In this document: piece by piece, positions 3,143-59,285 of the stretch
How positions within the stretch are numbered: the stretch's first letter is position 1
How the letters are laid out: every line of letters starts with the position of its first letter
Assembly: GCF_032854445.1 (NCBI RefSeq)
Contig: NC_088299.1
Location: 13,013,608-13,077,607 of the forward strand
Length of the DNA stretch: 64,000 nucleotides
Origin: Liolophura sinensis
Taxonomy: Eukaryota > Mollusca > Polyplacophora > Chitonida > Chitonidae
Reading direction: 5' to 3'
The notes under the pieces: model-generated
Told to the model about the DNA's origin: nothing
The model's input: only the letters and a program-made list of their open reading frames with translations
The model's database searches: none
Program-made: the position numbers and the translations under genes

Positions 3143-6100
3143 TTAAACCCTAAAATTCAAGCATGAGCTTTCTGATGATATTGGTTTGAATAAGAACCAA
3201 TACAGTAATTTATTAACACGCCGGAAACCAAGCTTCTCGTACATTGCTAGAGCTCGTTCGTTGTTGGTGGCGACGACAAGATACGGTGTCTGTTTCGGGG
3301 CTTTCTGTTCAATTTTCTTGATCATTTCTGTTGTTACTAGCTTTCCGAGGCCTTTTCCGCGGTATTCCGGCTGCACATATAGGAGAGCGAGTGCCCAGTA
3401 ATAATACAGCAGGCAGTAAGCTATCGGAATACCATCGGCTGTGTAAACTGCAACTGACGGCATATTGTTGATGAGTGCCCGGATGTATCGCTCACACAGA
3501 GGCCCGCCATCAGGCTCCCAGATTTGGCTTAGGGAAGTGGAAAGACAGGAATCCACGGTACCCACACGGTAGTCTGATGGCAATGGCCTATCTGGGATGC
3601 CACTGTGAAGAAAAAAATATAGCAGTGGAACTGCAGCCATCCTGAAACCTGCATGTTCCAAGTAGGTGTAAATGACAGAAAATAAACAGGCATGACTGAG
3701 TTCCTTTGGAGGGTCAAGGATATTACGCATGGAATAGCTATCCAAATTCAGCTTATTAATGTTCAAATCAATGTGATTATTAATTTTTAAAAAGCCAAAA
3801 AACAAAAGAAGGTGCGAAACTCCATGGATATCCTTTTAACAAGCCCGTTGATATAACGATGACAAGATCGCTGATATTTATGCAAATTAAGCTTACAATA
3901 TGCAAATTAATATAAGGATAGACCTGAAAAGTTGAAAGGGTTTTACCATGGCTTTGTTCTGTTTCTTCCCACCATAAGGCTACCTGCTGTCATATAAGTG
4001 ACAATATTGTTGAATTCAGCGTAAAACCCCAATGAAATAAATGAATGAATAAATATAATAATGAATGAAGGAATAAAACTAAACAATGGTGAGCAAGTCA
4101 TGTACAATAATGTAAAATACATTACAAATCATACACAGAATTACAAACCATATTGGCAGGGGTAGATAGAATTCCAACTCACATTAAGGTATCACGTGTT
4201 GATTTCGGTAAGTAATATATATACAGCTCAGTATCGAAAGGTACCACAGTTCCAACATGCTTCTTCCTTACTACTTTAGCTACTGTCTTCATACATTCTT
4301 TCGATACACCTGGAAGTAATAAAAAAGAATCGACATTCAATAAGTATAGATAAATGGTTTACACTCGAGTCAAAAGTTTCGGACAAATTAAAGTGTACAC
4401 GTATGATGAGTGAGTGCTTAGGGTTTAACGTTGCACTTGACAATTTTTCAGTCATATGACGACGACTACATCTATGACGATGAAGGAATCGTTAGAGTGC
4501 ATGTAATGTGACTCCTTGTTGCAGGACAGATTTCCACCCCTATTTTATCTAGTGCTGCTTCACTGAGACGCCTCACCGAAGGTAAGTAAGCTGCCCGCCT
4601 AAGACACTGTACTAATAGGAGTCAACCAGTCTTTGCCCTATCCCTTCATGCTGAACGCCAAGAGAGGAAGTTACAACTTCCTCTTTAAGGTCCTACGTGT
4701 GACACGACCCGGGATTGACTCTGGATCTACCGTGCTATCGGGGCCGGTTCATTTTAGATATAAAGCAGCTGAGTTAAGCTAATATGTTTCCTTGTTAAAT
4801 CTCTTCTGGATTCAGTAAGGATAACACGGGGGTTTCCGTGGCCGAAGGATTCAGGTTATCAATAAAATTAGTGTACGATGGCAACATATGTAACTAATTG
4901 GCTCTGTCGTTTATCACCCGATGTGGTGTTTATTTGTTTACGCACAGAAAAAAAAGACAGATAATTAAAAGACCTTTCTGTAAGCGCCGTTATCTCTTTA
5001 TACAAGACAGTGAATATTAAAAAATACAGCCACTTCTCCAGATTTCTTGAAATCGAAGAGACGAAATGAAAGTTTTTCAAACCGCCTATCAATGTAGAAA
5101 CATAAAATCACATTTTCTCTGTTAAATTGATCTTTCGTCGTTTAACATTAACATTTTGCTATGGCGACTTTGATATATCCTTGAGTGGTGTCACTGCTTG
5201 ATATCAGAGCCTGTAGTTTCAAAAATATAGTTTATATATAGTTAATATGCAGTAATTTTAGGCCAAGATGATTGTGTTAAGATTGCAGAATGATTTTCTT
5301 TGGGATCAGAAAAAAAGACACATCTCGATGTTATAAAACAAAATTTCCAGGGAAGAAAAAAAGGACACGTAGTTTATCTTGGCTCTATATTTCCCCATTC
5401 CACATCTCATGCGGGGGCAAACTTCTACACGGAAGTGTGGGTTGGAGCGGACTACTTTAGGATAGACTGAAGATCTTCCGGATTAAGCCAATTTCAGTAG
5501 AAGCCATAAATGTGTCGACAATGTCCTGACTTGGCAGAGGATACATCTACAAATGTTCAGCAACCCGTCTCTGCTGTAGCTGTGTCAGATCATCTCAAAC
5601 TAGGCGTGGTGTCATGTGATCTTTCCTATCTATTCTGACTCATCGCGACATGCATAAAGCGCCATGACTTTTAATAATCAACAAATAGCGCGTGTAATAA
5701 AACCATTCAGGGGATTCTCCGGTCAGGCCACCATCAGAATCAGCAAACCAAAACTTGCAGCACAGTGAGAATAGTAGAATTTGGCTTAAGGCTCCAACAA
5801 CTGCCGATTGTCTCATAGTGACGGTACCAAGTGGGTTTCATATTTACAAAATGTTTTACCCTTTCAAGCGCTCAAAAACTACACTTAAGGGTTTGGCTAA
5901 AGCAGACTGTCTCGGTAAATACATTGAACTACCAGTCATGGTATGCGCGTAATTAAAAATGATAAGGCATCTACAAAATTCAGAATCATAGGAAATGACA
6001 TCAACATCATCGGACATACAACTCAAGACTGTATCAAATGATATCAACTTCCAGAAGAGCTCTGTACAAATATCCATTATACAGTACACCTTTGTGAACA

Positions 6101-23066: not shown

Positions 23067-25367
<2,301 letters not shown>

Positions 25368-26590: not shown

Positions 26591-27807
26591 AACTCAGTAA
26601 ATAAATTAACTAATAGACGGATTTTTTCTGCACACCAGATAATTCCAAATTAATACGCTTTTTATCTAATCGCGCATAAATTAGTAATTTCAATAGATAT
26701 TACACATGTATTTATATGAGAGAATTACTTTAGTATGGGTAATTTTTTTCAATAAAATTTGCAACAATGGCTTTGCAGTTCTCAGTTATGTGAAATTTTT
26801 ACTGTTCTTTGTTGTTTTTTATTTCTCAGTTATGTGACTTATCTTCGGGTTTTATTTTCTCCCCTCTGGAATATAAAGCTAACATTTACACGCAGCTTCC
26901 GTTATTTTTCCAGTGTTAATGGACATCCTTGATTTTGTCTGTCTATCATCCGGGAAATATTTCATTCATTAAAATAAGGGATATACAGTGTACTTTATGT
27001 CGGAGGAAAGATGTTCAGCGGAGCGTAAAAACGCACATGTATTTAATCATTTTTTATCAACTAAAAACACATTGATTACCAGAGTGGATCACTTAATACT
27101 GTCTTTACAATGAAGTAACACTGTTCAATTCAGTTAATAAAAAAATTTGTAGATAACGGAAATTTGTTCAAGTAAAAACCATCGCCACAGGATATCGCTC
27201 CTTGACCGTGAGGCAATGTGTTCGAATCCAGCAGTCGCTCGGTTGTTAAATGACTAGTGTCCAAATTTAGCTAATGGTTCTAATTTAAAACATTATAATC
27301 GGTATATTACCGGGAGGGTTTCTAAGGAACGTAATAATGAGTTTAAATATACCTAAACAATAAATTTACCGCCCAGCCGATCTGCAGCTGGCCACAGCTG
27401 AGGTCATATATGACCAACCCAAGTGCAGCTGGCCTAAATAACCTGGGAATTCCATCAAAACGATATCCTTTTCGACATAGAAGCAAACATATTGCTGTTT
27501 CAATATTGAACCTATACTGGACGACATTCCGATTTATGACACTGACATCTCTGACCAGACTTTAGATTCTGAGATTTCAGACGTTGAATTTGATCTTTGT
27601 CAACTTGAAGGCATTTCCTTGTACACTGGCAATACAGACTGGTCAGCTATAGTTATATTGTATATTTCATGTGTTCATCTTAGAATGTAGTATTTATTGA
27701 CTGTTCTTTCCCTCTGATCGCTTCACAGTAAATATCATTCTATTCCCCGAGGAATACTAAATTCATACCAAAATGCGAAGACAATGTTGTTATTGGCATT
27801 CCTAATA

Positions 27808-28012
27808 ACCCATGCGGTCGCTGTGAGTTCGAGTCCAGCTCATGTTGGCTTCCTCTCCGGCCCTAAGTGGGAAGGTCTGACAGCACCCTCCGCATGGTCG
27901 TGGGTTTCCTACCGGGCTCTGCCCGGTTTCATCCCACCATAATACTGGCAGCCGTCGTATAAGTAAAATATTCTTGAGAACGGCGTGAAACACCAATCAA
28001 ATAAATAGCCTA
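27808..28012 (+). mobile_element. SINE family 1, head-truncated
   Basis: Starts just before the B box (catgcggtcgctgtgagttc), then body and tail (ccgtcgtataagtaaaatat ... caatcaaataaat). Confidence 0.85.
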
Positions 28013-29979: not shown

Positions 29980-31929
29980 ATGAAGTCTCTCATTCCTACT
30001 GCAGTCGTCCTCTCCTTGATATGTGTGGTTACCGTTTTTGGTAAGTTTTCATAAAAAATATGGCTTATTTGTTCGTTTGTTTGTTTGATTGTCTCCTTGT
30101 AGCAGACCGCGTCCAGTCTTAGCATACATATACACCTGGCTTCAACCATGCAAAAAACACAAACCAAGACTTACATACTTGTGACACCGGAGGGAAGCCC
30201 TTGACCTCACGTTCAGCGTTAAGTGGCAAAAGTCTTAATTGTCAGTCTTAATTAACACTGATGCAATCAGGCGTGTGCGTTGCTATTATTTATGCATTTA
30301 CACGAACAGTCAATGACGTTGTTTTCAAATTCATGATTATACCAACACAGCATTTTCAGTAATTCTAGACCAATACCGATATCTAACAAATTGCTGTCAT
30401 GTCTTATGGTGCTGTGTAATAGCTGAAACACAAAGCATGTTACTGTCAATGATAATTACGTACCAGAGGAAAGGATTTGTTGTCAAACCGATTAAATGAA
30501 AGATAGGCCGAATTCTAAAAGAGATGATAATTGGCTCACACTTCACATTTCGGTGTGGTATTGCTTGTCTCATTTTTGTGAAAGGCACTGCAACTAAGGC
30601 ACCAATGGGCCTCCGATTTGAATTTACTGTTTTGTTGATTTTTTTTGGTATGTTTCACTTATATTAAAGAAGGCGATGAGGTTTACAGGTATGGAAGACT
30701 GGAGTACCCGATATAAAACACCGCCCAATTAAAAACCTGATTTGGAGCCAAGGCTCCAGAGCTGTATTGAAAACCTTTAGCACAAATGAAGATTATGTGT
30801 GCAGAAGTTTACGTCGGCATAACTTCACATCCAAACAAAGTGCGAATCAAAGAACGGTGAAAACCGAGTTATTTTATTAAACCTTTCAATCCAAAGCCCA
30901 GCGGGATACTTAATTCTGTTTTGAAACCTTCTGGTGTAAGTCCTTGATAAGTCAGGGAAAGACAACCAATTATGGTTGTGTCGAACGTTTTTACGCATAA
31001 AACAAAGATGATGTTGATCGGCCATGATCAGCCTGCCTATGATCTTGACTTTATCATTAGCTGTGTGAGGTGCTCATTTTTACAAAACAAAAATGTCTTT
31101 ATGATATGAATGATAGGTCACTGATTTCATTTTAGGTCGCGGCTATGTGGACTACAGAGGGCATCGAGTCTCTGACTCTCAAGTCAGACAGAAGCTACAG
31201 CAAATAGCCAATTTGTACGGGAAGCGCGTCTGGTTGACGAGTGGCGACCGCAGAGGAACAGGAAGATCTCACGTGAGTTTATATAGGAGTTATTTCCCTT
31301 GGCAAATGTTGCGACTGTGGGCAAATCAAGGGTACTTGAGCGACATTTCTAACTATTTATGTATTAAATTTAACTTAAAATTTGTAATAAATATTTTCCC
31401 TGACTCTTCGCACAGAGCCATACCATAATACCACCTGAGACTTGCACTTTACAACGTATCAAAAATCATCCATAAGTAATGTTATCCATAAGTAATGCCT
31501 CTGTCAATCTGTATCAAAAATCAACCTGACACGACCACTATTTTTTAGCTATTTGTTGTTATAATTGGAGTAATATCATTTTGTCACCTTATCAACCTCC
31601 TCGGGAGGTGGGTAGTATCACTGGGCAAAGCGTTTTTAGTTCATCCGCCAGCGGTCCACGTTAAGCTGAGACATTTTTTTGTTTCTCAGCATTACAAGGG
31701 AAGGGCTGCTGATTTCTGGATAGACGGGGAAACATCCGGTGTAAACATCCTCAACCGAATCCGACGGAGCGGGATCATGCCGAGGAACTATCAAGTCATC
31801 TATCACGGGAGAAACACGTGCACACAAGGCTTTCACATGCATATTGGTCGCTATAACTACAGCCGTGCCACCTGTTGGGTGTTCGAAGGTACCAACAGCA
31901 GGAATAGATGTGTCTACAATTGTATGTGA
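29980..31929 (+). CDS. Secreted peptidase-M15-like protein, single domain (145 aa), 3 exons
   Basis: Exons 29980-30040, 31136-31272 and 31690-31929; phases agree. Residues 1-20 are a signal peptide (MKSLIPTAVVLSLICVVTVFG). The mature part has LTSGDRRGTG, then SHHYKGRAAD (65-74), an exact SxHxxGxAxD zinc motif of the M15/D-Ala-D-Ala carboxypeptidase fold, and HMHIGRY (115-121) that can supply the third ligand. Four cysteines near the C terminus (TC, TCW, RC, NC) are shared with the paralogue at 36081-45962 and probably form disulfides. M15-type enzymes cut peptidoglycan peptides in bacteria and phages; an extracellular role against or on bacterial walls is an inference. At the position where the paralogue has Glu (E-H-I-H) this protein has Phe (F-H-M-H), so activity is uncertain. 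The intron falls exactly before the zinc-binding His codon. Confidence 0.82.
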
Positions 31930-34423: not shown

Positions 34424-35000
34424 TACACGAGACAAGCAATCTGCAATAACATTATCTTTTCCCTTTACATGTTTGATTTCAAGATTGTATTCCTGCAACA
34501 ATAAACTCCACCGTAACAATCTCTGATTCTTTCCATTAACTCTCTGTAGAAACACAAGTGGATTGTGATCAGTATTTACAATCACAGGTTGTCTCGAAGC
34601 TGTTACATAAACTTCAAAATGTTGCAGAGCTAAAATAACAGACATTCTTTTTCAACAGTTGAATAATTCCTCTGAAACTTGTTAAGTTTACGGGAAGAGA
34701 AACAAACTGGATGATCAACACCAAGATTGTCCTCCTGAAGCAAAACAGCACCTACAGCAACATCGTGAAAATTGATACCAGTTCTTGATGGTACATCCGG
34801 AAATAAATGTGAAAACTCAAAAACAAGTTCAGACAGTTGCTGTTGCAGAATGGGTTCCAGATGTTGCAGTTTAGAATCAAGTTGTTTTAAGACATTTGAA
34901 TTCTGAAGCTTTGAAGAATTGAGCTTAGAATCAACCAACTGTTCGCCAATATCATCTGTATTACAGCAACTCTGGTCAATGTCAGCAATGAAAGTTAATT
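34424..35000 (-). pseudogene. Ty3/gypsy pol remnant (RNase H part, RT deleted, frameshifted)
   Basis: Upstream part ends in FSHLFPDVPSRTG, typical of the protease-RT linker, and then jumps straight to RNase H (VAVGAVLLQED ... HPVCFSSRKLNKFQRNYST ... EKECL). So the whole reverse transcriptase core is missing. A one-base frameshift near 34640 separates this from the rest of RNase H (VILALQHFEVYVTASRQPVI ... TDHNPLVFL ... GKDNVIADCLSRV). Integrase is absent before the LTR. It is a dead copy, minus strand. Confidence 0.85.
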
Positions 35001-36019
35001 TACAAACACAGAAGTGCTAATGGGAGAAGGGTTCAACTAATGGGCGCTGTTGTTTGCGTTTAAATCTAATTTGTTCACCTCCACAACAGAAGATCCTCTG
35101 GAGCGTAACTGACATACCCATCAACATTATTAACCTACATAGGCAGGCCAGGTCTACCACGATTGTTTGATCATGGCTCACAGGTTACCCATACCACCAC
35201 CCTACCCCACCACCCTCACCCTAGACATACTATTTAGAATCGTGTGAATAAATTAAACGCACTCCACCTATTTTCAAAGGTCGCATATTTATTTGTGAAT
35301 TAAAGCTGAGATGTACTTCAACGACAAAAAGGGTAAATGCACAATAACTGGGACATCCTCTGTGTAGGATTTCGTGTGGTCTTCCGCAACGGCCTGACGT
35401 GAAGCGCAAAGGCCCATGTAAAAGTATAGGCCCATGTTCAGAGATATGATGTCAAAAAAGACCTGGTCTCACTTGCACGTAGCCCTCTCAACCTTATGAG
35501 CTCGAAACTACCATGGCAACCAGTACTGTAGGCATTATGTCGCCGGCTTCGTACAAGTTGGCCCTGGAACGGTAAGGTGGGGAACGGGACATGCCGGCTT
35601 TCTTTTTTTTAACTGATTTATCCACTTTTGCAGTCAGAATTTTTCTTTCTTTTTTTTTACGCACCTCCAAAGAAACTTTCCCAGAAAAAGATCTCGGACC
35701 TCTAGATAATCGTCCAAATGGATTACAACTTGATTCTGGGTTTCGTCTAAATCGCGATACCTGCGGCCAAATGATTGGCTGGTTATCTCGGGGATCACAA
35801 TATTATGTCAGGACCTTAGAAAATCAGCCAATGATAATGTCACATACATGAATCTTTCAACAAAAGCGCGAGGCAAAACGTAATCCGATTGGTTCGGTGG
35901 ACAAAGTTGTTTTCGGCGAGTTTTTGTTTTTGTTATGTCGTATGAATGAAAATTATTAGATCGTGACTAACGATAAAGAGATCACAGAAAAAAATACTGT
36001 CTGTTGGGGAGGCTGCCAA
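35001..36019. other. 5' flank of the modular M15 gene
   Basis: No coding region was recognised. Sequence is ordinary AT-rich DNA with T-runs near 35605 and 35655. It ends at the TATA box of the downstream gene. Confidence 0.5.
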
Positions 36020-36027
36020 TATATAAA
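36020..36027 (+). promoter_or_regulatory. TATA box of the modular M15 gene
   Basis: TATATAAA lies 54 nt before the ATG at 36081, the same layout as in the paralogous gene (57 nt). Confidence 0.65.
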
Positions 36028-36080: not shown

Positions 36081-38835
36081 ATGACAACTGTGCTCCGCGT
36101 AATCTTGCTGGTCACTTTAATGTGTGTGGCCAAGATTTTGGGTGAGTTGATGTTATTTAATGTAGTTGAATGTCTAGTGTTATCTGTGAGGCAAGTATCT
36201 GGGGTGAGCTAAGGTCAGCAGGGGATAAGTTAATTTATTTTTTTATACTTGTGTATATTGCTCGTTTGTGGTATCTTATGATTTTGTTGCTTGAGAATAA
36301 CAACGGTTTGGGCTTAGTTATAGTTGTTTATGCTACTTTTGTGTAGCAATCGCTTGGAGTAAGTTATTGTTTCCCTGTTATTTTGACGTTAAACAATGTT
36401 TTGTAGACTGCGACTAGGTTTGAGGTAAGCTGAGTTTGCCATGTTACCTGCCTGGCAAGTGTTTGGGGTATGTTAAGTTTGCTGATGTTACCTGCATGGC
36501 GAGTGTTTGGAGTAAGCTGAATTGGCTATGTTACCTGCGTGGCGAGTGTTTGGAGAAAGCTGTTTGCTTATGTTATCTGCGTGGCGAGTGTTTGAGGTAA
36601 GCTGAGTTTGCCATGTTACCTGCGTGTTGAGTGCTTGGGCAAACTGAGTTTACTGATGTTATCTGCACGGCTAGTGTTTGAATAAGCTGAATTTGCTATG
36701 TTACCTGCATGGTGAGTGTTTGGGGTAAGCTGAGTTTGCTGATGTTATCTGCATGACGAATGTTTGGGGTAAGCTGAGTTTGCTGATGTTACCTGTGTGG
36801 CGAATGTTTGGGGTAAGCTGAGTTTGCTGATGTTACTTGTGTGGCGAGTGTTTGGGGTAAGCTGAGTTTGCTGATGTTATCTGCATGGCGAGTGTTTGGG
36901 GTAAACTGAGTTTGCTGATGTTATCTGCGTGACGAGTGTTTGGGGTAAGCTGAGTTTGCTGATGTTATCTGCGTGACGTGTGTTTGGGGTAAGCTGAGTT
37001 TGCTGATGTTACCTGTGTGGCGAGTGTTTCGGGTAAGCTGAGTTTGCTGATGTTATCTGCATGGCTAGTGTTTGGGGTGAGCTGAGTTTGCTGATGTTAT
37101 CTGCATGACGAGTGTTTGGGGTAAGCTGAGTTTGGTGATGTTACCTGTGTGGCGAGTGTTTGGGGTAAGCTGAGTTTGCTGATGTTACCTGCGTGACGGG
37201 TGTTTGGGGTAAGCTGAGTTTGCTGATGTTATCTGCATGACGGGTGTTTGAGGTAAGCTGAATTTGCTTATGTTACCAGCATGGTGAGTGCTTGAGTAAG
37301 CTGAGTTTGCTATGTTACCTGTATGGCGAGTGTTTGGGGTAAACTGAGCTTTATGTTGCCTGTTTTATCATAAGGCTCAAGTTTTAGGTTAATTGTAAAT
37401 CAATTTATTTACGCTGCTGTTCCTTTCTGATGTGTTGGCAGATTTAGAAGTCATATGGTTAAACATAATGATTTCTATCTACGTTTAAAACACTGTTAAA
37501 ATCTTTTTACAGGTGATCAAAAATGCACAGCCAAAAGAGGGAAATGTCAGGAAGACAGTATAAACTGCCCAGGAGGATATCAATCCAACTTGTGCGATGG
37601 CGCAGCGGACAGGCGATGCTGTCTTCCTAAAGCTGGTGAGTAGGGGTTTCCCGCATAAACCAAAGATTAAACATTCTAGTCATTTAAACAATTAAACCTG
37701 TTCATAAAAAATGTCTTATAAACATTGTCATGCAGTCTATAGTTAGAAATTCTTTGCATATCAATTATTTAATCCCCGCGGAGCTGGTCGTTATCTCTTG
37801 GAGATATGCTAATGTATAATGCGTAAATGAGTTGATTTTTTGTATATATCTATGAAGAATGGCCTTCGTTCTGAAACAAAATCAAGTTTTCTTACCTTCA
37901 TTTTTAAATTCAAATTACAACTGATTCGATACTTATTTAATCTTCATCGAATTAAATAAAGATAATAGACAGATTTAGATATACAATTTACCTGAAAAAT
38001 GCCCATATACCCATGTTGGCTGTAGGTCCCTAATCTTCAGTGAATGTCCATAAATCACAGGTGATGGTGACAAGAAATGTACAAATAAGGGAGGAAAATG
38101 TCAGAAAGACAGCCTAAACTGTGCGGGAGGGTATCAGTCCAACCTGTGCTCCGGTGCTGCCAACATACGATGTTGTCTTCCTAAGGCTGGTCGGTATTTT
38201 CCTTTATATATAGTGCTTTTGTCATTTTTTTAAAATCCATTTGGTTAATTTATTTGGAGTTCCCAATGAGATATTTACCAAATTTAACAAATGAAAATAA
38301 ATTTGGAATTCCAGACTATGTTCCTGATTCAGATAAAAGACTACAATACATCGAAATCGTTTGCGATGGAGATGTTATTTTCATTTTACATTTAGGGTAA
38401 AATGTTTCAAAAATTAACTGTAACAAAATTTGTGAGTGCTTACTAGAATTGACCAGTCCTTTATGTACAAAAACAAATATATAGATTATACCGAGTAGGA
38501 AACCCAGTGGCTTTGGAAAGACGGGATACACACAAAGGTCCAAAATGCAGATAAAAACGTACCGGTTTTTTGATGTAGTGTGCAATACAGTGCTTATGTA
38601 TACTTCCTAACTGTTTAATAAGTCCACACACTCCACAAAGCGTGACCTGTGAAAGAAAAAACAAATGGGTACATAGCTTTGGGCCACTGTGTGAAAAGCG
38701 TAAAGGAGATCCGCATGAGTAAGATTACCTTATATTTAATTCATTAATGTCCAAGCCGTATGCTTTAAAAACACTATGGAATGGTATTTCACAACGGGAA
38801 ATGGCAGATAAGAAATGTAAAGTTAAGGGAGGAAA

Positions 38836-38908
<73 letters not shown>

Positions 38909-41900
38909 CGCTTTTGTGGGTAACATGAAAGACCAAAATGCATTTAATCATTTTTTTCCTGTTTCCGTTTTATATTTTGGGGAAAATGTCTGAACAATTA
39001 CTTGCTATAAAATATGTGGGAAGTTATTAGAACTACACTGTCGAATATGTAAAAGATCGACTACATACTTGACTGAGATACCCATATACAGTGCTATAGT
39101 TATTTTAGACTGACACTTTCTGTGTACAGAACACATGTCAAACTGGCCACTCCAAGTCTTGAACTAAAGACTTCAAAGTCAGTCTCCTTAAAACCAGCAG
39201 TACATTTCAACCATCTAGATCATACGGCGTTTGCCTGATTTAGAGGTCGTTGGTTGGAAACCATGAGTGGTCTCTGCTAAATTTAAGAGTTACAATTTTT
39301 AATGGTAAATCCCGAATATCGATAGTACTGTCACTAAACGTGCATGTACATTCCAAATAACATCCATCAATATGGTAGATACATTTGACATATGGAACCC
39401 GGCTAATGCAGATTATTTTCCAGCCGTTAAAACCTTGCGTTTTTCTTCGTAAACACTGTATGGTGATGTTACAGGAGATGCAGATAAAAAATGTAAAGAT
39501 AAGGGCGGAAAATGTCAGAAAGATATCTTAAACTGTGCGGGAAAGTATCAGTCCAACTTGTGTTCCGGTGCTTCCGACAGACGATGTTGTCTTCCTAAAG
39601 CCGGTGGGTATATCTCCATTACATATATACAGTGCGTTGTTAATTTTTGTAATTTATTTAACTGGAAATATTTAACATACTGCAATTTGCCGTACAAGGT
39701 TGTAAATAAAACACTTGTCTTTAGATCATTATAGAAATAATAGCTTCATTCAGTGTGCATGCGCTATAATAACTGCAGTATTTGAAAAGTGTCCATCGTT
39801 TTTGGACGAGGCCAACGAACAGCCACCATGCTTTTACATCTTTTATCATACAGACACTGTTTTGCTTTTTTACATATTTTTTTTTAATTTAATTTTTTTT
39901 TCCATTTTCTAAACCCATGTGAAAAACCCAGGGTAACAGTTCTATAATTTTTGGAAGCAATTCGGAAGAAATTTAAAAATGACCTAGTGAAAATATACAT
40001 AAGCCTACCTGTACTATTCTATTTGTATATGTAGGGCCTCACATAAAAACAATGCACACTTCCTTTTTTACTCCAATTATTACAGCGTGTACGCAGTGAA
40101 GCCGTTATTCCTTTTTTTAAGATCTGTAAGTCTCAATGGCTGATGTCATATTTTCTACACAGGAAAACTTAATCTGCTGATTTCAACAGAAAGTCTGCTG
40201 TCTGAGTGATGCTAGAATGTATTATGTTATTATCAGATAATATTCTGTCATACTGAACCTAATATTTTGTCAGTCTAGTAAAATAATGTTAGTCTAGTGT
40301 TTATAATCTTTATGTTGAATTAACTGAATATGTGTTTTATATTATATTATTATATATAACAGAACAATGTGAGACAAAAGCAAAATACATTCTATCATCA
40401 CTCAGGCAACAGAATTTCTGTTGAAATCAGCAGATTAATTTTTTGAGTGTACATTTTGTAGAAAATAATAAACCTAATGTCTCACTTATTGTTGTTGCAC
40501 GCCTCAAAAACTAATCTCGCGTTATGCCATCACTGCTATCGTGCCCGGTCTTACAGACGTTGCATAGAGTTTATAACATTGTTTAATGTTATTTCGTTAC
40601 AGGAGATGGAGATGAAAAATGTAAAGATAAGGGTGGAAAATGTCAGATAGATAGCTTAAACTGTGCGGGAAAGTATCAGTCCAACTTGTGCTCTGGTAAT
40701 GCCAAGAGACGATGTTGTCTTCCTAAAACCGGTCAGTAAAATTTGCTTTCAGTTGTTTTTTGTTAAATTAATGAAAATTCAGATGTTTAACTTGTCAGTT
40801 TTCCCTTTAAGGCTTTACATTAAAATCATCAACTTATTTTAGTTTAATAGCCGCATATGGGCAGAAATATCAAAATATTAATTCACATGGAAGGCCACCG
40901 TACTTTCAAATTGTTCCCTTGGTCCGTGTGACAATCGTTAATTTCTTTTTTTTTTTAATTTTTTTCATTTTGCAGGGGTTTTTTTTAGTCCATATATTCA
41001 AACCTTGCGTATGTTTCATAAACACTATATGCAGTATAATTAAGACGTACAGTACAGAGAGAAGAATCATAGCAGCGACCAACTTGTGATAACTGCGAAA
41101 TACGAAATGATTAAGTAACCGATGAAATACAGCCCCCAGTTTCATTTAATTTACCTCCATTGGGGTTTTATTTTAACTGTGCACTTAAATGCTTAAACTG
41201 TAGCAAATTACACCCCCCTCCTCCGTTCTGGTTTTACAGAACGAATGTTTCAAAGATGAAATTGATTCCTTCACTGCATAAATTTCCCATGCCGTCCTTT
41301 AAATCTTACGTTTGTTTCGTAACCATTATTAAATGCTATTTCATTACAGGAGACAGAGATAAAAGATGCATAGACAAAGGAGGAAAATGTCAGAAAGACA
41401 GCATTAAATGTCCAGGAGGATATCAGTCCAATCTATGTTCTGGTGCTTCCAACAGACGATGTTGTCTTCCCAAAGGCGGTGAGAATATATGCTACACTTT
41501 ATGGCATAAAGGACTTGCCATCACAACAACCAAAAACGTCGTGCTATGTCACTGGTTCGAATCCAGGTTTGACAATTAGCGTAAAATTTAGGTAACTTTC
41601 AGGTTGAATTTACCAAAACATTTATACGCCGTCTAACAGATGAAGTAAGTGTATTAAATTAACAATCACGTTGACGAAATAGTAAGTAACCATCTGATGT
41701 TAAATACCCCCAATATCTTCGGTCACTTGAGGTCTGTGGTTAATAGAAATTTTCCTTATATGCCCAAGCAGATGAAATACCTTAGATAACACCTAGATTG
41801 CAAAATTTATTGATCTGAGCTTATTACATTATTTGTTTCGCAGAAAGAATAAACATGGAGAAAAAATAGATGGTACGAAGAGTATTATTTCCAGCTACTG

Positions 41901-44900
41901 TGTATGGCCCAGAATTACGAAGCTGTATTAGACTAAAGCCAGGCTTAGTTTTATCGTCAAAATGCTATGTTTACTTGAGGAATTTTCAATTTGTTCAGGC
42001 TTTCATTACAAAATTTTTAATTAGCCTTCACGTTTAAAACTGTAAGCTCTGAAATAATACTGCAAGCTGGATGCAAACTCGAAAAATCCAAATAACACAA
42101 CTGAACACTAAGTCAGACGTAAGGCAGTTTCATGATTATGGGACATGGCGCTGAAGGGAAGAAAAAATTCACTGCATTTATGTTTTAGATGACAAGAAGT
42201 GTAAAGAGCTGGAGGGAGTATGTCAGAAGGACAACATTAAATGTGCGGGTGCATATCGCTCCACGTTGTGCTCTGGTGATGCGGACAGACGTTGTTGTCT
42301 TCCTAGTGCTGGTACGTAGCACAGTGTAAAGATATTCTATAAGTGCCGAACTAATAGATTTGCATAATTGACTGGGTATGGAAATGTATTGTAAAAAGTA
42401 CAATGGTTTTCAAACATAAAAAAGGGTTCTTTTCTGTAAGTATTTAGGCCATGTTTTCACGTATGATTTCTTAGTTTAGTTGTACCGTGTAAATAATAAA
42501 GTCTAAGAAACGCTTTCAAATCTCGTTGTTTGCCTGGTAATGTAAGCCTGGGCCAACCTTGTTGAGGAGATCTAACTTTTCCCATGTCCTTTAATGACTT
42601 TAAATGGAAACGAAGCATGGAATGAAATTGTGCTTATAGGTGCATCAATGAAAATTGGATCTATAACAATATCAAAAGCACCGCATTCAAATGTTGACAT
42701 CCAATTAAGGTGCATTCATAGCTTCCAGACCCAATACGACAGATTTAAGGCATTTGCTCACATACATATTAATCCTACCTTGCATTTCAAGTATCTAAAA
42801 GCGTTTAATTATTTTATTCGCAGTCAAGAAAGTTTTCCTAATTACAGATTATCCGGTTTTCTCTCACTTGACCTCCAGATTACGTGATTTTATAATTCAG
42901 TTGCGATTTGTTGTGAGATGACGATAATATCCCCATACTCAACAAAAACAAAGAATGCCTGCAGATGGTGATTAGATGCCTGGGAGGATGAAGACGACGT
43001 TTTCGTATATAGCATGAATGCATGGATGACAATGGTTTCACACTACCTGTGCAATATTACAGTCATATCATAGTGATACTTACCATGCAGTGATTACCTT
43101 AGGCATCTGGTTCCACGAAACCATTTCTGACATAAGCGGAAATTTGAAATACGATCTTAAAGCTTGTTTTTGGGCTTTGAAAATTGAAAGTTTGACCGTC
43201 TCTCCCACTGTTACCCCTCCACTCATCAATGACATTTTTAGACCAAGCGTGTCTAAATTTCTACTCCCAGTATCATAAAGAATATCGTAAAGAGTTTTCC
43301 AATTTTGGACTAAAGTCAGAAATAGCTTTGAGGAATCGGCCCCGGAGGATATATCAATATTAATAAACCGGGGTTTCTAAAGCAGCATTATTGGTTTATT
43401 TTCAGACCTAAAATGTATTAACCAGGGAGGTAAATGCCAGCTTACTAGCAAAAGCTGTACGGGGTCGTACAGATCCAATCTCTGCGGGGGAAAATCCAAC
43501 CGGAAATGCTGTCTAGAGGTAAAAAAAGGTAACAATTTCATTTTTGTCTCGATTACTGAATTGTACATGGGATTAATCGTGGGTTTGAGCAGGTCATAAA
43601 TCATGATCGTCTTATGTCCATTACTGGACTGTAAATGGGATTAATCGCGGATTTGAGGAAGTCGCAGCCCTTCTTGTTACCATCACTGGTGTACCATTAA
43701 CGATACACGTGATTCATCATGAATATATCGAGGTAACAAAATCCCAGCATCCTCTTTATTATAATAAAGCAAGGGTTTTTTTTTGAACTGGTGAAATCGG
43801 TCCAGCTAGCAACATTACCATTTAAGATTTAAGATTTAATCAACTACTCAAACTTAAACGTGGGTTTAAATTTCATCACACTTTTGAACCATCGGACCTT
43901 TTTATAATGAACACGTTTGAGTATGTGTTCTTAACGTATGATTTTGTGATTAAGGATCCGGAACAGTGGCTTACCGTGGATTCACGGTTTCTGACAGAAT
44001 CGTACGAAATAAGCTTAAGGAGATAGCCGATCTGTTCGGGCGTCGACTGTGGCTAACCAGTGGGGATCGCGATGGAACTGGTCGCTCTCATGTGAGTCTG
44101 CGTGTAGTTATCTCCCTTGGCATGATGACCGTCAACTGATCTAAACAACCTTTTTACACACATTCTTTAATTTGTCTACCTCTGAACAGGATTCACACGC
44201 GTCAAATGGCTCAACAAAGCCTAAGTTTCCCCTCCACAACCAAAATCTATAACCAGATGTTGGGCCTTGCTGGTTTTTAGAGCATAAGCCGTGGTCGATC
44301 AACGCAAAGAAAACGTTTATTTGTTTCGCACTAATAAAAAGAATGTGGCAAAATGGGCAAATGGGGAAAAAATCCAATGAGCATGGTGCCATAATTTTAC
44401 TCCTACTGTGATGAAAAGAACAGTTGAATACTTTTGAAGAATTTACTTCTGGAAGATCCGGTAGAGACTTGTGATACTTTTGCCGCTTGAGGCCTCTAAA
44501 CAGCATGGGACTACATAAACCTTTATCCTTTGGATGTTTTCATCATTCCTTTAAAACATCGCCCAGAAGCTCTTGTGGCTGGACCCAAACCAGTCAGTTT
44601 CGTCCTTGCCTGCTGATCACAATATCACCGTTTTGGTTGTGAAGGAGAGAAATTTGACATTTGCAAAGGCTGAGTGTTGAGTGACGCGATTTCGCCTACT
44701 GAGAGTACTGTACCATTCGCATCGTTATCCAAATCGACATCTTCTCTTTCGAAATCAAAATTGCCAGAATCACATTCATCATAGTATTCTGTCGTCTAAT
44801 CTTCTTCGCTCGTTTTGGGGCCTCCGTGGCTCAGTCGGTTAGCGCGCTAGTGCAGCGTAATGACCCAGGAGTCTCTCACCTATGCGGTCGCTGTGAGTTC

Positions 44901-45962
44901 AACTCCAGCTCATGCTGGCTTCCTCTCCGGCCGTACGTGGGAAGGTCTTCCAGCAACACGCAGATGGTCGTGGTTTACCCCCGGGCTCTGCCCGGTTTCC
45001 TCCTGCCATAATGCTGGCCGCCATCGTATAAGTGAAATATTCTTGAGTACGGCGTAAAACACCAATCAAATAAATAAATAAATAAATAAATAAATCTTCG
45101 CTTGTTTCATTTGATTAGCAACTCATCATGACCTTTCATGATTGAAATAAATCAGCTGGTTAGTGACTATGATGACGTAGTATCGCTGCCAAGCACAGAA
45201 ATATATGACAGCTCCGACGTTTAATAACTGTGCGATAGTCAATGACTGATAATATTAACAGAAAATGACATTGATTTTTTTTCGACGTTGGAAGGCTCTG
45301 TATTAAAGGTTTTAAAGATTTTATTTTATTGTCCACAAAAAAAACGCAAAGAGAGACAACTCCAGGTTGGCCTGACCTGGTTAGCAGCAGTTTTCCTTAG
45401 TTCCACATGTACGTCTCAAAAATGCTCTTTATGGTTATAAATTCATTATATGACGACCTTCCTGGGGTATTGATCTCCAAATATCTACCCGTGTATCCCC
45501 GGAAGATCGTCATATAACTAATATTATATGGCATGACATAGTTGATTTGCTGTTATATGTTATCAGCTTTATTTACCACCTGTATTTGTATATAATCTCA
45601 AATATATTCCTTTGGGAACTGGTGAAAATGAATCTTTGGAAGGACGTTCATGGTTTACAAGTGCATAGTATATGCATGGATATCGCACTTGACCTTTTTA
45701 CAGCTGTCTGGTTAATTTCCAGCACAATGTGGGCCGGGCGGCTGACTTTTGGGTGGACGGAGGGCTGACGGGAGGTCAAATGTTCAACCGGATCCGGAAC
45801 AGTGGGATACTGGATCAAGATTTCCAAGTGATTTGGCACGGAAGAGGCACGTGCACGGGAGGAGAACACATCCATATTGGTCGCTACGGAGATGGCCGAG
45901 AAACGTGCTGGGTTCACGAAGGGACACGCGCTAGCAACAAATGCGTTTATACCTGTATGTAG
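36081..45962 (+). CDS. Secreted protein with seven six-cysteine modules and a C-terminal peptidase-M15-like domain (440 aa), 10 exons
   Basis: Exons 36081-36141, 37513-37635, 38061-38189, 39475-39603, 40603-40731, 41350-41478, 42189-42311, 43406-43528, 43955-44091, 45723-45962; 1323 nt, all phases agree. Signal peptide 1-20. Exons 2-8 each code for one module (about residues 21-315) with fixed spacing C-x6-C-x6-C-x8-C-x7-CC and a GYQSNLCSG-like core; every module exon is a symmetrical phase 1-1 cassette. Exons 9-10 (316-440) form the M15 domain: SHHNVGRAAD (360-369) gives zinc ligands H362 and D369, and EHIH (409-412) gives a possible catalytic Glu and third His ligand. Four C-terminal cysteines match the paralogue. 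I recall similar CC-ended six-cysteine modules beside cell-wall hydrolase domains in other eukaryotes; binding to bacterial wall is an inference. Some donors are weak (GTCGGT after exon 3, GTCAGT after exon 5). Confidence 0.85.
36420..37360. repeat. 44-bp minisatellite in intron 1, about 21 units
   Basis: Core unit: gtttggggtaagctgagttt followed by gctgatgttacctgcgtggc gagt. Units are 44 bp apart with few changes in the middle of the array and more at its ends. Most units contain GGGGTAAG, a good match to a splice donor, lying between the true donor of exon 1 and the acceptor of exon 2. Confidence 0.95.
38795..38838 (+). pseudogene. Broken remnant of an eighth cysteine-module exon
   Basis: The bases gcagataagaaatgtaaagt and taagggaggaaaa match the first third of the module exons (compare 39480-39515), in the same order and strand and between two intact modules. 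The sequence then runs straight into an (AT)n array, and the rest of the module is missing. After the array the sequence resembles the intron just downstream of exon 3 (agcgcttttgt). So a former module exon was lost by microsatellite expansion or deletion. Confidence 0.75.
38839..38907. repeat. (AT)n microsatellite inside a former exon
   Basis: About 33 uninterrupted AT units. Confidence 0.97.
40165..40450. mobile_element. MITE with about 55-bp terminal inverted repeats
   Basis: Left end cttaatctgctgatttcaac agaaa is repeated inverted at the right end (tttctgttgaaatcagcaga tta). The inverted match continues inward through gagtgatg and tagaatgta. It is about 286 bp, non-coding, in intron 5 of the modular M15 gene. 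A diverged relative is at about 32880-33080. Confidence 0.75.
44817..45096 (+). mobile_element. SINE family 1, full length
   Basis: Best complete copy in the window: head gcctccgtggctcagtcggt with A box, B-box-like GAGTTCAACTCC, body with cccccgggctctgcccggtt, and tail gtacggcgtaaaacaccaat with six AAAT units. It is in the last intron of the modular M15 gene. Confidence 0.93.
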
Positions 45963-46031: not shown

Positions 46032-46037
46032 AATAAA
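46032..46037 (+). terminator. Polyadenylation signal AATAAA of the modular M15 gene
   Basis: First AATAAA downstream, 70 nt after the stop codon. Confidence 0.6.
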
Positions 46038-48060: not shown

Positions 48061-48469
48061 GTGTAACACAGTTACACAGTTAAAGGTTGAGGTGATAGGT
48101 TTTTTTTTAACTTTCTGTGCATGTGTAGTTAGACTGCGATATATACGTCTCCATGTGTATACACGCTCTGTTTGAACACACTTGATCCTTGATAAGGCAT
48201 TGACACCTAACAAAACCAGGCTAACAGTGACACGTTAAGGTCCCCTCCCCTAACCGAGAGCCCGTGTTGTTTATCGGTTGCTCGTCGTCTAAAAGATAAC
48301 TCACATGGATTTGACAGACAAGTGCTGCAGGACACCGATACACAGGCATCTTGTGATCTTGTTTCGGACAAGAGTCAACAAAGCGAGGCTGAAAAGTACG
48401 AACTGTTTTACACAGCTGGCCTAAAGTCAGACGAGCTATTCAAGAACAAGAGGAGACGAAACAACTAGA

Positions 48470-59285
<10,816 letters not shown>

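What the first reader, a model, noticed from the sequence alone, without database searches (positions are those of the whole stretch)
36081..45962. Secreted M15-type peptidase fused to seven exon-encoded six-cysteine modules
Seen: signal peptide, seven modules with invariant C-x6-C-x6-C-x8-C-x7-CC spacing, each in its own phase 1-1 exon, then a domain with SxHxxGxAxD and EHIH. Known: the M15 fold acts on peptidoglycan peptides in bacteria and phages, and phase 1-1 exons duplicate without frameshift. Inference: an animal effector against, or processor of, bacterial cell wall, with the modules as targeting or defensin-like parts. Modules 2-5 are much more alike than 6 and 7, so the expansion is probably recent and may vary between individuals.
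Basis: partly seen in the sequence, partly recalled or inferred. Interest (0 to 1): 0.88.

Follow-up and report, generated by a model that had tools for sequence, protein, structure and literature searches.

The report
Chiton enzyme with defensin-like modules
A chiton gene encodes a secreted enzyme, probably one that cuts the peptides of bacterial cell walls, carrying seven small defensin-like modules; it is an enlarged relative of a design already described in sea squirts and other animals.

Summary
In detail: ten exons (36081-45962, +) encode 440 residues with a putative signal peptide, seven C-x6-C-x6-C-x8-C-x7-CC modules in phase 1-1 exons and a domain with SxHxxGxAxD and HxH. Scaffold lengths identify the chiton Liolophura japonica. 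The kind is known: rusticalin has two modules of the same spacing and an M15-clan peptidase. Here the peptidase is nearest Pfam M15_3, below its cut-off, with profile support from phage M15_3 endolysins. The module model has a helix and three strands; 7 of its 14 weak Foldseek matches are beta-defensins. New: seven modules, a module-free tandem paralog (29980-31929), at least six M15 loci of which two have modules, and the module before an Amidase_2 domain and a possible phage-type lysozyme. Most likely it is a secreted peptidoglycan peptidase whose cationic modules bind bacterial envelopes; they may instead stabilise it, as in a Trichoplax lysozyme. Metal site, activity and transcript were not shown; recent, variable expansion is weakly supported.

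The parts
36020..36026 (+). TATA-like box about 55 nt upstream of the ATG (position only)
   Evidence: TATATAA found by script; not tested
36081..36141 (+). exon 1, putative signal peptide, ends in phase 1
   Evidence: signal peptide judged by eye, no predictor was run
37513..37635 (+). exon 2, module 1
38061..38189 (+). exon 3, module 2
   Evidence: structure model of this module
39475..39603 (+). exon 4, module 3
40603..40731 (+). exon 5, module 4
41350..41478 (+). exon 6, module 5
42189..42311 (+). exon 7, module 6
43406..43528 (+). exon 8, module 7
43955..44091 (+). exon 9, first part of the M15-like peptidase domain (residues 316-361)
45723..45962 (+). exon 10, second part of the M15-like domain with H362, D369, H410, H412, and stop
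46032..46037 (+). AATAAA polyadenylation-like signal
   Evidence: position only
29980..30040 (+). tandem paralog without modules: exon 1, putative signal peptide, phase 1
   Evidence: by eye
31136..31272 (+). tandem paralog: exon 2, first part of M15-like domain
31690..31929 (+). tandem paralog: exon 3, second part of M15-like domain and stop; intron at the same codon as in the seven-module gene
   Evidence: the script stopped one base short of the end of the stop codon; the TGA is read

Best explanation
The locus is an ordinary, probably working nuclear gene of the chiton Liolophura japonica. It encodes a secreted M15/LAS-type zinc peptidase, most likely acting on the stem peptides of bacterial peptidoglycan, with an N-terminal string of seven cationic beta-defensin-like modules (net about +29 over 294 residues) that most likely hold the enzyme on anionic bacterial envelopes by many weak contacts. 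The module is a phase 1-1 exon that also stands upstream of other presumed wall-cutting domains in the same genome (an Amidase_2 domain, and a possible phage-type lysozyme). Shown: gene structure, coding constraint, paralogs, and module exons upstream of these domains on the same strand. Inferred: splicing, secretion, zinc, substrate, binding role of the modules, and a role in defence or in digesting bacteria.
For: Intact frame and GT-AG introns. In 21 of 21 module pairs, and in 6 of 6 pairs among four M15 genes, pN is below pS. H362, D369, H410 and H412 are invariant in five distinct paralogous domains. Pfam best match PF08291 Peptidase_M15_3 in 4 of 5 domains, best E 1.7e-4; PHROG 894 endolysin, E 0.092 for this domain and 0.0028 for the tandem paralog, over stretches that hold both motifs; hhalign against 13 phage M15_3 sequences: probability 94.6%, P 6.6e-8, SxHxxGxAxD on SxHxxGxAxD, and in a forced global alignment H412 falls on the invariant phage H116; control of modules against the same phage profile: 0.3%. 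Module model pLDDT 86.8, helix + three strands; 7 of its 14 Foldseek matches with E<=10 are beta-defensins and one is the tick carboxypeptidase inhibitor. Array: 60 K+R, 31 D+E. Module upstream of an Amidase_2 exon (E 4.2e-15) and of exons matching Vibrio phage proteins, one of them annotated lysozyme domain protein.
Against: No domain reaches the Pfam cut-off (best 22.1 of 23.2 bits); the C3 paralog gives no Pfam match at all; the top PHROG match of this domain is a tail protein family (phrog_6465, E 0.055), ahead of the endolysin family. PDB searches with the protein, the domain profile and the module profile found nothing. No Foldseek match of the module is significant on its own: the top row (E 1.5) is a luciferase and four rows are intimin chains. 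The exon-10 model is too poor to show a metal site. No transcript, protein or activity was seen. A published relative (PLys of Trichoplax) uses such repeats as a stabilising part that is cut off on maturation, which is not an anchoring role.
Confidence: 0.6

Rival explanations
1. The modules are a pro-part: they stabilise or restrain the peptidase during storage and secretion and are removed on maturation, so the working enzyme is the bare M15 domain.
For: Passages of PMC12855814: in the Trichoplax lysozyme PLys the N-terminal cysteine-rich repeats stabilise the protein at the cost of activity and are truncated in the mature form. Three M15 loci without a module in the stretch read (four if the two C2 copies are separate genes) exist in this genome, so the enzyme domain can evidently be encoded alone. 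Rusticalin's authors offered a regulatory reading too.
Against: A pro-part does not by itself explain growth to seven modules under purifying selection or the positive net charge of every module (+2 to +6).
Confidence: 0.25
2. The peptidase domain is no longer an enzyme and serves as a binding or signalling domain, like the peptidase fold of Hedgehog; the modules are the active antimicrobial part.
For: Position 409, three residues before H412, is not conserved (E, F, Q, E, V), and that is where M15 enzymes of the E-x-x-H type keep their catalytic acid (recalled). Styela rusticalin itself lacks part of the active site, and its authors raise the Hedgehog comparison.
Against: H362, D369, H410 and H412 are all kept in five diverged paralogs, with synonymous sites saturated in 6 of 6 pairs tested among four of them. 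H-x6-D with H-x-H is the motif of the LAS peptidases, where the first His of HxH acts in catalysis (recalled).
Confidence: 0.1
3. The array is a precursor from which single defensin-like peptides are cut.
For: The linkers between modules are short and hold lysines. The C11 locus has two modules, the second followed at once by a stop codon, and none of the three catalytic domains was found in the 12 kb read downstream, so modules may also be made without an enzyme.
Against: No repeated dibasic or RxxR site lies at the same place between all modules (read from the protein).
Confidence: 0.07

Closest known systems
Rusticalin and rusticalin-like proteins (Styela rustica and others; PMC6339383, parts 1-3 of 7 read)
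   Same: Signal peptide, cysteine-rich repeats with spacing Cx6Cx6-7Cx8Cx7CC (the spacing of the modules here), C-terminal peptidase of the M15/MD clan, predicted secreted, introns in the repeat-coding part. The C3 paralog (two modules + M15) has the same layout.
   Different: Two repeats, not seven. The paper likens the C-terminal domain to the phage A500 endolysin with its zinc and catalytic residues, and the 2020 paper names Peptidase M15 PF13539 for six repeat proteins, with Trichoplax as its metazoan M15 case; here no PF13539 match appears at E<=10, the best is PF08291, and the motif is HxH. Two introns inside the domain there, one here. Taxa listed there: tunicates, cephalochordates, a coral, a placozoan; no mollusc.
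Cysteine-rich-repeat proteins surveyed by Daugavet et al. 2020 (PMC7379824, four of five parts read)
   Same: 382 proteins with the repeat; 98 of the 124 with an annotated domain carry prokaryote-type domains such as phage lysozyme, Amidase_2 and M15, including a fungal protein with repeats before a PF08291 M15 domain.
   Different: No chiton and no molluscan M15 fusion in the text read; molluscs appear with Amidase_2, and through the cited bivalve phage lysozyme. Its supplementary table could not be read here.
Phage M15_3 endolysins (PF08291, PHROG 894; crAss-like phage cr113_1 and IMG/VR relatives)
   Same: SxHxxGxAxD motif and C-terminal His; profile match 94.6%.
   Different: No modules; no cysteine in the consensus of the 13 aligned sequences, where the animal domain keeps four; in most of them W, not H, two residues before the last His.
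PLys, Trichoplax goose-type lysozyme with N-terminal cysteine-rich repeats (PMC12855814, passages)
   Same: Repeats of the same published class before a wall hydrolase.
   Different: GH23 catalytic domain; repeats shown there to stabilise and to be removed.
Beta-defensins and tick carboxypeptidase inhibitor
   Same: Six cysteines ending in CC; helix plus three strands in the model; they make up 8 of 14 weak Foldseek matches.
   Different: No significant sequence or structure score; cysteine spacing differs from the usual defensin ranges (recalled).

Membership tests
rusticalin-like proteins | signal peptide + cysteine-rich repeats + C-terminal M15-clan peptidase | tested here: met
   signal peptide by eye only
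rusticalin-like proteins | repeat spacing Cx6Cx6-7Cx8Cx7CC | tested here: met
   7 of 7 modules; spacing from the paper
rusticalin-like proteins | two repeats | tested here: not met
   seven in the window gene; two in the C3 paralog
rusticalin-like proteins | Peptidase M15 of the PF13539 / A500 endolysin type | tested here: not met
   hmmscan at E<=10 gives only PF08291; no rusticalin sequence was at hand for a direct comparison, so homology of the two domains stays open
rusticalin-like proteins | two introns at fixed places inside the C-terminal domain | tested here: not met
   one intron, same codon in both window genes; exons of the C3, C8 and C2 loci break at the matching place; two in the paper
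Pfam PF08291 Peptidase_M15_3 | score over the curated cut-off (23.2 bits) | tested here: not met
   16.1 bits for the window domain (12.9 for the whole protein), and 22.1, none, 15.7, 15.2 for the four other distinct paralogs
Pfam PF08291 Peptidase_M15_3 | homology at profile level and SxHxxGxAxD motif | tested here: met
   hhalign probability 94.6%, P 6.6e-8, 57 columns, against 13 phage sequences; control 0.3%
M15 / LAS zinc peptidases | His, Asp, His zinc site in space and peptidase activity | tested here: inconclusive
   residues invariant in five distinct paralogs; exon-10 model pLDDT 54; activity not testable
beta-defensin fold | helix + three-stranded sheet with three disulfides | tested here: inconclusive
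   model pLDDT 86.8 with H-E-E-E; 7 of 14 weak Foldseek matches are beta-defensins, none with E<=0.001; disulfide pairing not seen
beta-defensin fold | antimicrobial activity | not testable with these tools
   needs the peptide

The most novel reading that the evidence does not exclude
Chitons have built, from exons, their own counterpart of a phage endolysin: a wall-cutting peptidase with a tunable, multivalent wall-binding string of defensin-like modules, in which one phase 1-1 exon serves as the common targeting cassette of unrelated wall hydrolases (peptidase, amidase, probably a phage-type lysozyme), while module-free enzymes and an apparently enzyme-free module gene exist beside the fusions.
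Probability: 0.3. Interest if true: 0.7.

Novelty: new variant of a known kind. Interest (0 to 1): 0.48.

Why it matters
Whether the cysteine-rich repeats found on many animal and fungal wall hydrolases are anchors, killers or removable stabilisers has been left open in the papers read here. A seven-module enzyme beside a module-free tandem paralog in one genome is a natural pair for that test: related catalytic domains (63% identical) with and without modules. The genome also adds a mollusc (a chiton) to the animals with repeat + M15 proteins. I found no report of this in the held library, which lacks most subscription journals.

Tried and rejected
Led nowhere: close relatives of the M15 domain in IMG/VR and in the GTDB genome contigs: none confirmed, though these scans start from short conserved stretches only. 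Profile A1 over 395 genomes of the phylum of a Tannerella MAG: 1 of 395 with a weak match (E 2.3e-4, 51 residues), not pursued; in that MAG itself none at E<=1; no positive control was available. INPHARED phages and PLSDB plasmids: one weak match each (E 0.1 and 1). NCBIfam: none. Pfam family PF08291 against the own genome: none at E<=1, perhaps because each exon alone is short and distant. Second structure job (exon 10 only, two rows) gave pLDDT 54; the 50 Foldseek rows shown of 325 are mostly antibody chains and mean nothing. tRNA or Rfam elements that might support the published phage-attachment-site idea: none in the window. The sigma-70 scan says nothing about an animal promoter. An IQ-TREE run hit its time limit. 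FastTree: on the five domains the two modular genes (window, C3) do not pair exclusively, so gain or loss of modules is undecided; on 13 modules those of C3 group with the amidase-linked module (0.91), apart from window modules 1-6, but other supports run as low as 0.04 with 38 residues; not built on.

Rejected: bacterial contamination (introns; a 19.5-Mb scaffold of an animal assembly); chance (seven of seven matches in the six-frame 64 kb lie in order in one gene); pseudogene (intact frame, pN below pS in every pair).
Full report
WHAT IS THERE. Joining the ten exons named by the finding gives an unbroken frame of 440 codons and a stop, with GT-AG at all nine introns. Introns 1-8 are phase 1, so a module exon can be added or removed without shifting the frame; intron 9 falls between H361 and H362 in phase 0. 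A scan of all six frames of the 64 kb with relaxed cysteine spacing gave seven matches, all in this gene, in order, with exact C-x6-C-x6-C-x8-C-x7-CC spacing. The motif residues are as stated: S360-H361-H362-x6-D369 and E409-H410-I411-H412. TATA-like and AATAAA signals lie at plausible places.

WHAT THE FINDING MISSED. About 4 kb upstream (exons 29980-31929) is a tandem paralog: a putative signal-peptide exon ending in phase 1, then directly the same two M15 exons, split at the same codon, with no modules. Over the domain it is 63% identical to the seven-module gene.

WHOSE GENOME. The held genome has 609,464,459 bases in 632 contigs. Five contig lengths that I saw (19,479,325; 58,388,612; 28,395,274; 27,489,247; 32,819,725) equal scaffolds 13, 4, 10, 11 and 7 in the table of the Liolophura japonica genome paper (PMC11068029, found by its size, passages read), which also gives 632 sequences. 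Two further lengths (C6, C10) differ by a few thousand bases from scaffolds 2 and 6, and the total by about 31 kb. The window is thus from a chiton (Mollusca, Polyplacophora).

THE FAMILY IN THIS GENOME. Searches of the whole genome with the domain found six second-exon and six first-exon places: the two window genes; C3 (two modules + M15); C8 (no module found in the 30 kb read); and two C2 copies about 30 kb apart with identical domain translations (no module by tblastn in the 70 kb fetched, part of which reads N; three regex matches there are low-complexity stretches). Signal exons of C8 and C2 were not identified with confidence. The counts are lower bounds. The five distinct domains share 51 invariant columns, including H362, D369, H400, H410, H412 and four cysteines; position 409 is not kept. 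In 6 of 6 pairs among four of these genes synonymous sites are saturated while pN is 0.20-0.30, so these are old, constrained paralogs. A FastTree of the five domains does not pair the two modular genes exclusively, so whether modules were gained or lost is undecided.

THE MODULE ELSEWHERE. A composite module query found 16 places and a C11 module 17. Outside the M15 genes: C6, a putative signal exon, one module and an Amidase_2 exon (E 4.2e-15; the amidase reading as a PGRP is from memory of its motifs); C10, four places, one read, with a module followed on the same strand by exons of which one matches 39 phage records at E<=0.1. Of the ten rows listed there the best (E 2e-7) is annotated as a coil-containing protein or virion RNA polymerase and one (E 1e-5) as a lysozyme domain protein; Pfam gives only a subthreshold fn2 match and PHROGs only phrog_37474 of unknown function. 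I read it as a phage-type lysozyme like those co-opted by bivalves, partly from memory; that label is tentative. C11 has two modules and then a stop codon, and tblastn with the three catalytic domains found nothing credible in the 12 kb that follow; its signal exon was not found. C7 has one weak place, not read. In C6 and C10 the module exon also appears to be phase 1-1 (sequence, by eye). That module and catalytic exons of C6 and C10 are spliced together is inferred. The three other C10 places were not read.

WHAT THE DOMAINS ARE. Pfam's only match to the domain is Peptidase_M15_3 (PF08291), below its cut-off of 23.2 bits: 16.1 for the window domain, and 22.1, none, 15.7 and 15.2 for the other four distinct paralogs. 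PHROGs gave a tail family (E 0.055) and an endolysin family, phrog_894 (E 0.092), for the window domain, and phrog_894 first (E 0.0028) for the bare paralog. I took a phage endolysin matched weakly by tblastn, confirmed as PF08291 (E 1.2e-20), aligned it with 12 of 34 IMG/VR relatives and compared profiles: probability 94.6%, P 6.6e-8 over 57 columns, with the SxHxxGxAxD stretches on each other. The modules against the same phage profile gave 0.3%. The local alignment does not reach the HxH; in a forced global alignment H412 meets the invariant phage H116. The phage profile in turn matches one PDB sequence at E<=0.01, the muramoyl-pentapeptide carboxypeptidase 1LBU (E 1.1e-8). The chiton protein and domain profile match nothing in the PDB by sequence. 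H-x6-D with H-x-H is, from memory, the signature of the LAS peptidases. The module, modelled from seven window sequences, has pLDDT 86.8 and a helix followed by three strands. Foldseek found 14 chains with E<=10, none with E<=0.001: 7 beta-defensin chains, the tick carboxypeptidase inhibitor, one SCRiP1, four intimin chains, and a luciferase at the top. This agrees with the published HHpred link of rusticalin repeats to beta-defensins and that inhibitor; it is suggestive, not proof.

HOW IT MOST LIKELY WORKS. Shown: gene, constraint, architecture, paralogs. Inferred: the protein is secreted, folds its M15 domain around zinc held by H362, D369 and H412 with H410 as catalytic helper, and cuts peptidoglycan stem peptides; the array (60 K+R, 31 D+E over 294 residues) holds it on negatively charged envelopes. 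Where a catalytic partner of the module was read in this genome it is a presumed wall hydrolase (M15, Amidase_2, possibly lysozyme), which is the best argument for a wall-directed role. The strongest rival is a stabilising, removable part, as reported for Trichoplax PLys (passages). Chitons are grazers (recalled), so digestion of bacteria is as likely as defence. Because the lysozyme label is tentative, I set the odds of the boldest reading at 0.30 where I had first put 0.35.

RECENT AND VARIABLE? Synonymous distances are low only among modules 2, 3 and 4 (0.16-0.34); 5 and 6 stand at 0.67-1.26 from them and from each other; pairs with module 1 give 1.38 or more, and 6 of 6 pairs with module 7 are saturated. 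Intron flanks of 60 nt are 25-58% identical over modules 1-6. This points to stepwise duplication, the latest being 3-4, not to a fresh burst. Variation between individuals could not be tested.

WHAT IS KNOWN. Rusticalin (PMC6339383, parts 1-3 of 7 read) is a predicted secreted protein with two repeats of the same spacing and an M15-clan domain, reported with its relatives from tunicates, cephalochordates, a coral and a placozoan. The follow-up (PMC7379824, four of five parts read) found 382 proteins with the repeat, joined to phage lysozyme, Amidase_2, M15 and others, including a fungal protein with repeats before a PF08291 domain. Bivalve phage lysozymes co-opted by transfer are published (PMC5303276, part 1 of 4 and passages), one fused to a PGRP gene. 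So this is a new variant of a known kind: more modules, another M15 subfamily by Pfam, another phylum, with a bare tandem sister. By the stated tests it should not be filed as a rusticalin proper.

LIMITS. No eukaryotic protein or transcript collection was available, so I could not compare with real rusticalin sequences, other molluscs or RNA. Origin of the domain by transfer from phage or bacteria is plausible but was not shown: no close prokaryotic or phage relative was found.

Noticed in passing
window 36411-37346: A tandem array of a 44-nt unit (about 20 copies) fills much of intron 1.
   Followed up: no
window 34424-35016 (-): Pieces of a retroelement reverse transcriptase/RNase H (RT_RNaseH, E 7.4e-12 and 2.5e-10) lie between the bare and the seven-module gene. 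Described only.
   Followed up: partly
window 44818-45095: A tRNA-like SINE-type repeat with an (AAAT)n tail sits in intron 9; a similar stretch lies at 27800-28010 (seen by eye). ARAGORN and Rfam call no tRNA in the window.
   Followed up: partly
window 23073-24616 (-): A tubulin gene in at least two exons (Tubulin_C E 6.8e-45, Tubulin E 9.8e-37).
   Followed up: partly
window 48425-50044 (+): An open frame of 540 codons (stop to stop) with no Pfam match at E<=0.01; a methionine followed by a hydrophobic stretch near its start suggests secretion.
   Followed up: no
window 54224-54577 (+) and 3149-3835 (-): An exon of a nose-resistant-to-fluoxetine (NRF) protein (E 3.3e-9) and a GNAT acetyltransferase (FR47 E 5.8e-15).
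   Followed up: no
L048 (C11), about 937-1905: Two modules of the same kind, the second followed at once by a stop codon: possibly a free two-module protein without enzyme.
   Followed up: partly
C8 stretch, loci L010-L012: A second, frame-broken copy of the first M15 exon lies upstream of the C8 gene. Noted only.
   Followed up: no
L015 and L018 (C2): Two M15 genes about 30 kb apart with identical domain translations: a recent duplication or an assembly duplicate.
   Followed up: no
L050 (C6) and L049 (C10): The same module type stands upstream of an Amidase_2 exon and of a possible phage-type lysozyme in this chiton genome.
   Followed up: partly
L051, 905-1321: A crAss-like phage endolysin annotated as one coding sequence holds three in-frame TAG codons, as expected of a phage with recoded TAG (recalled).
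   Followed up: no
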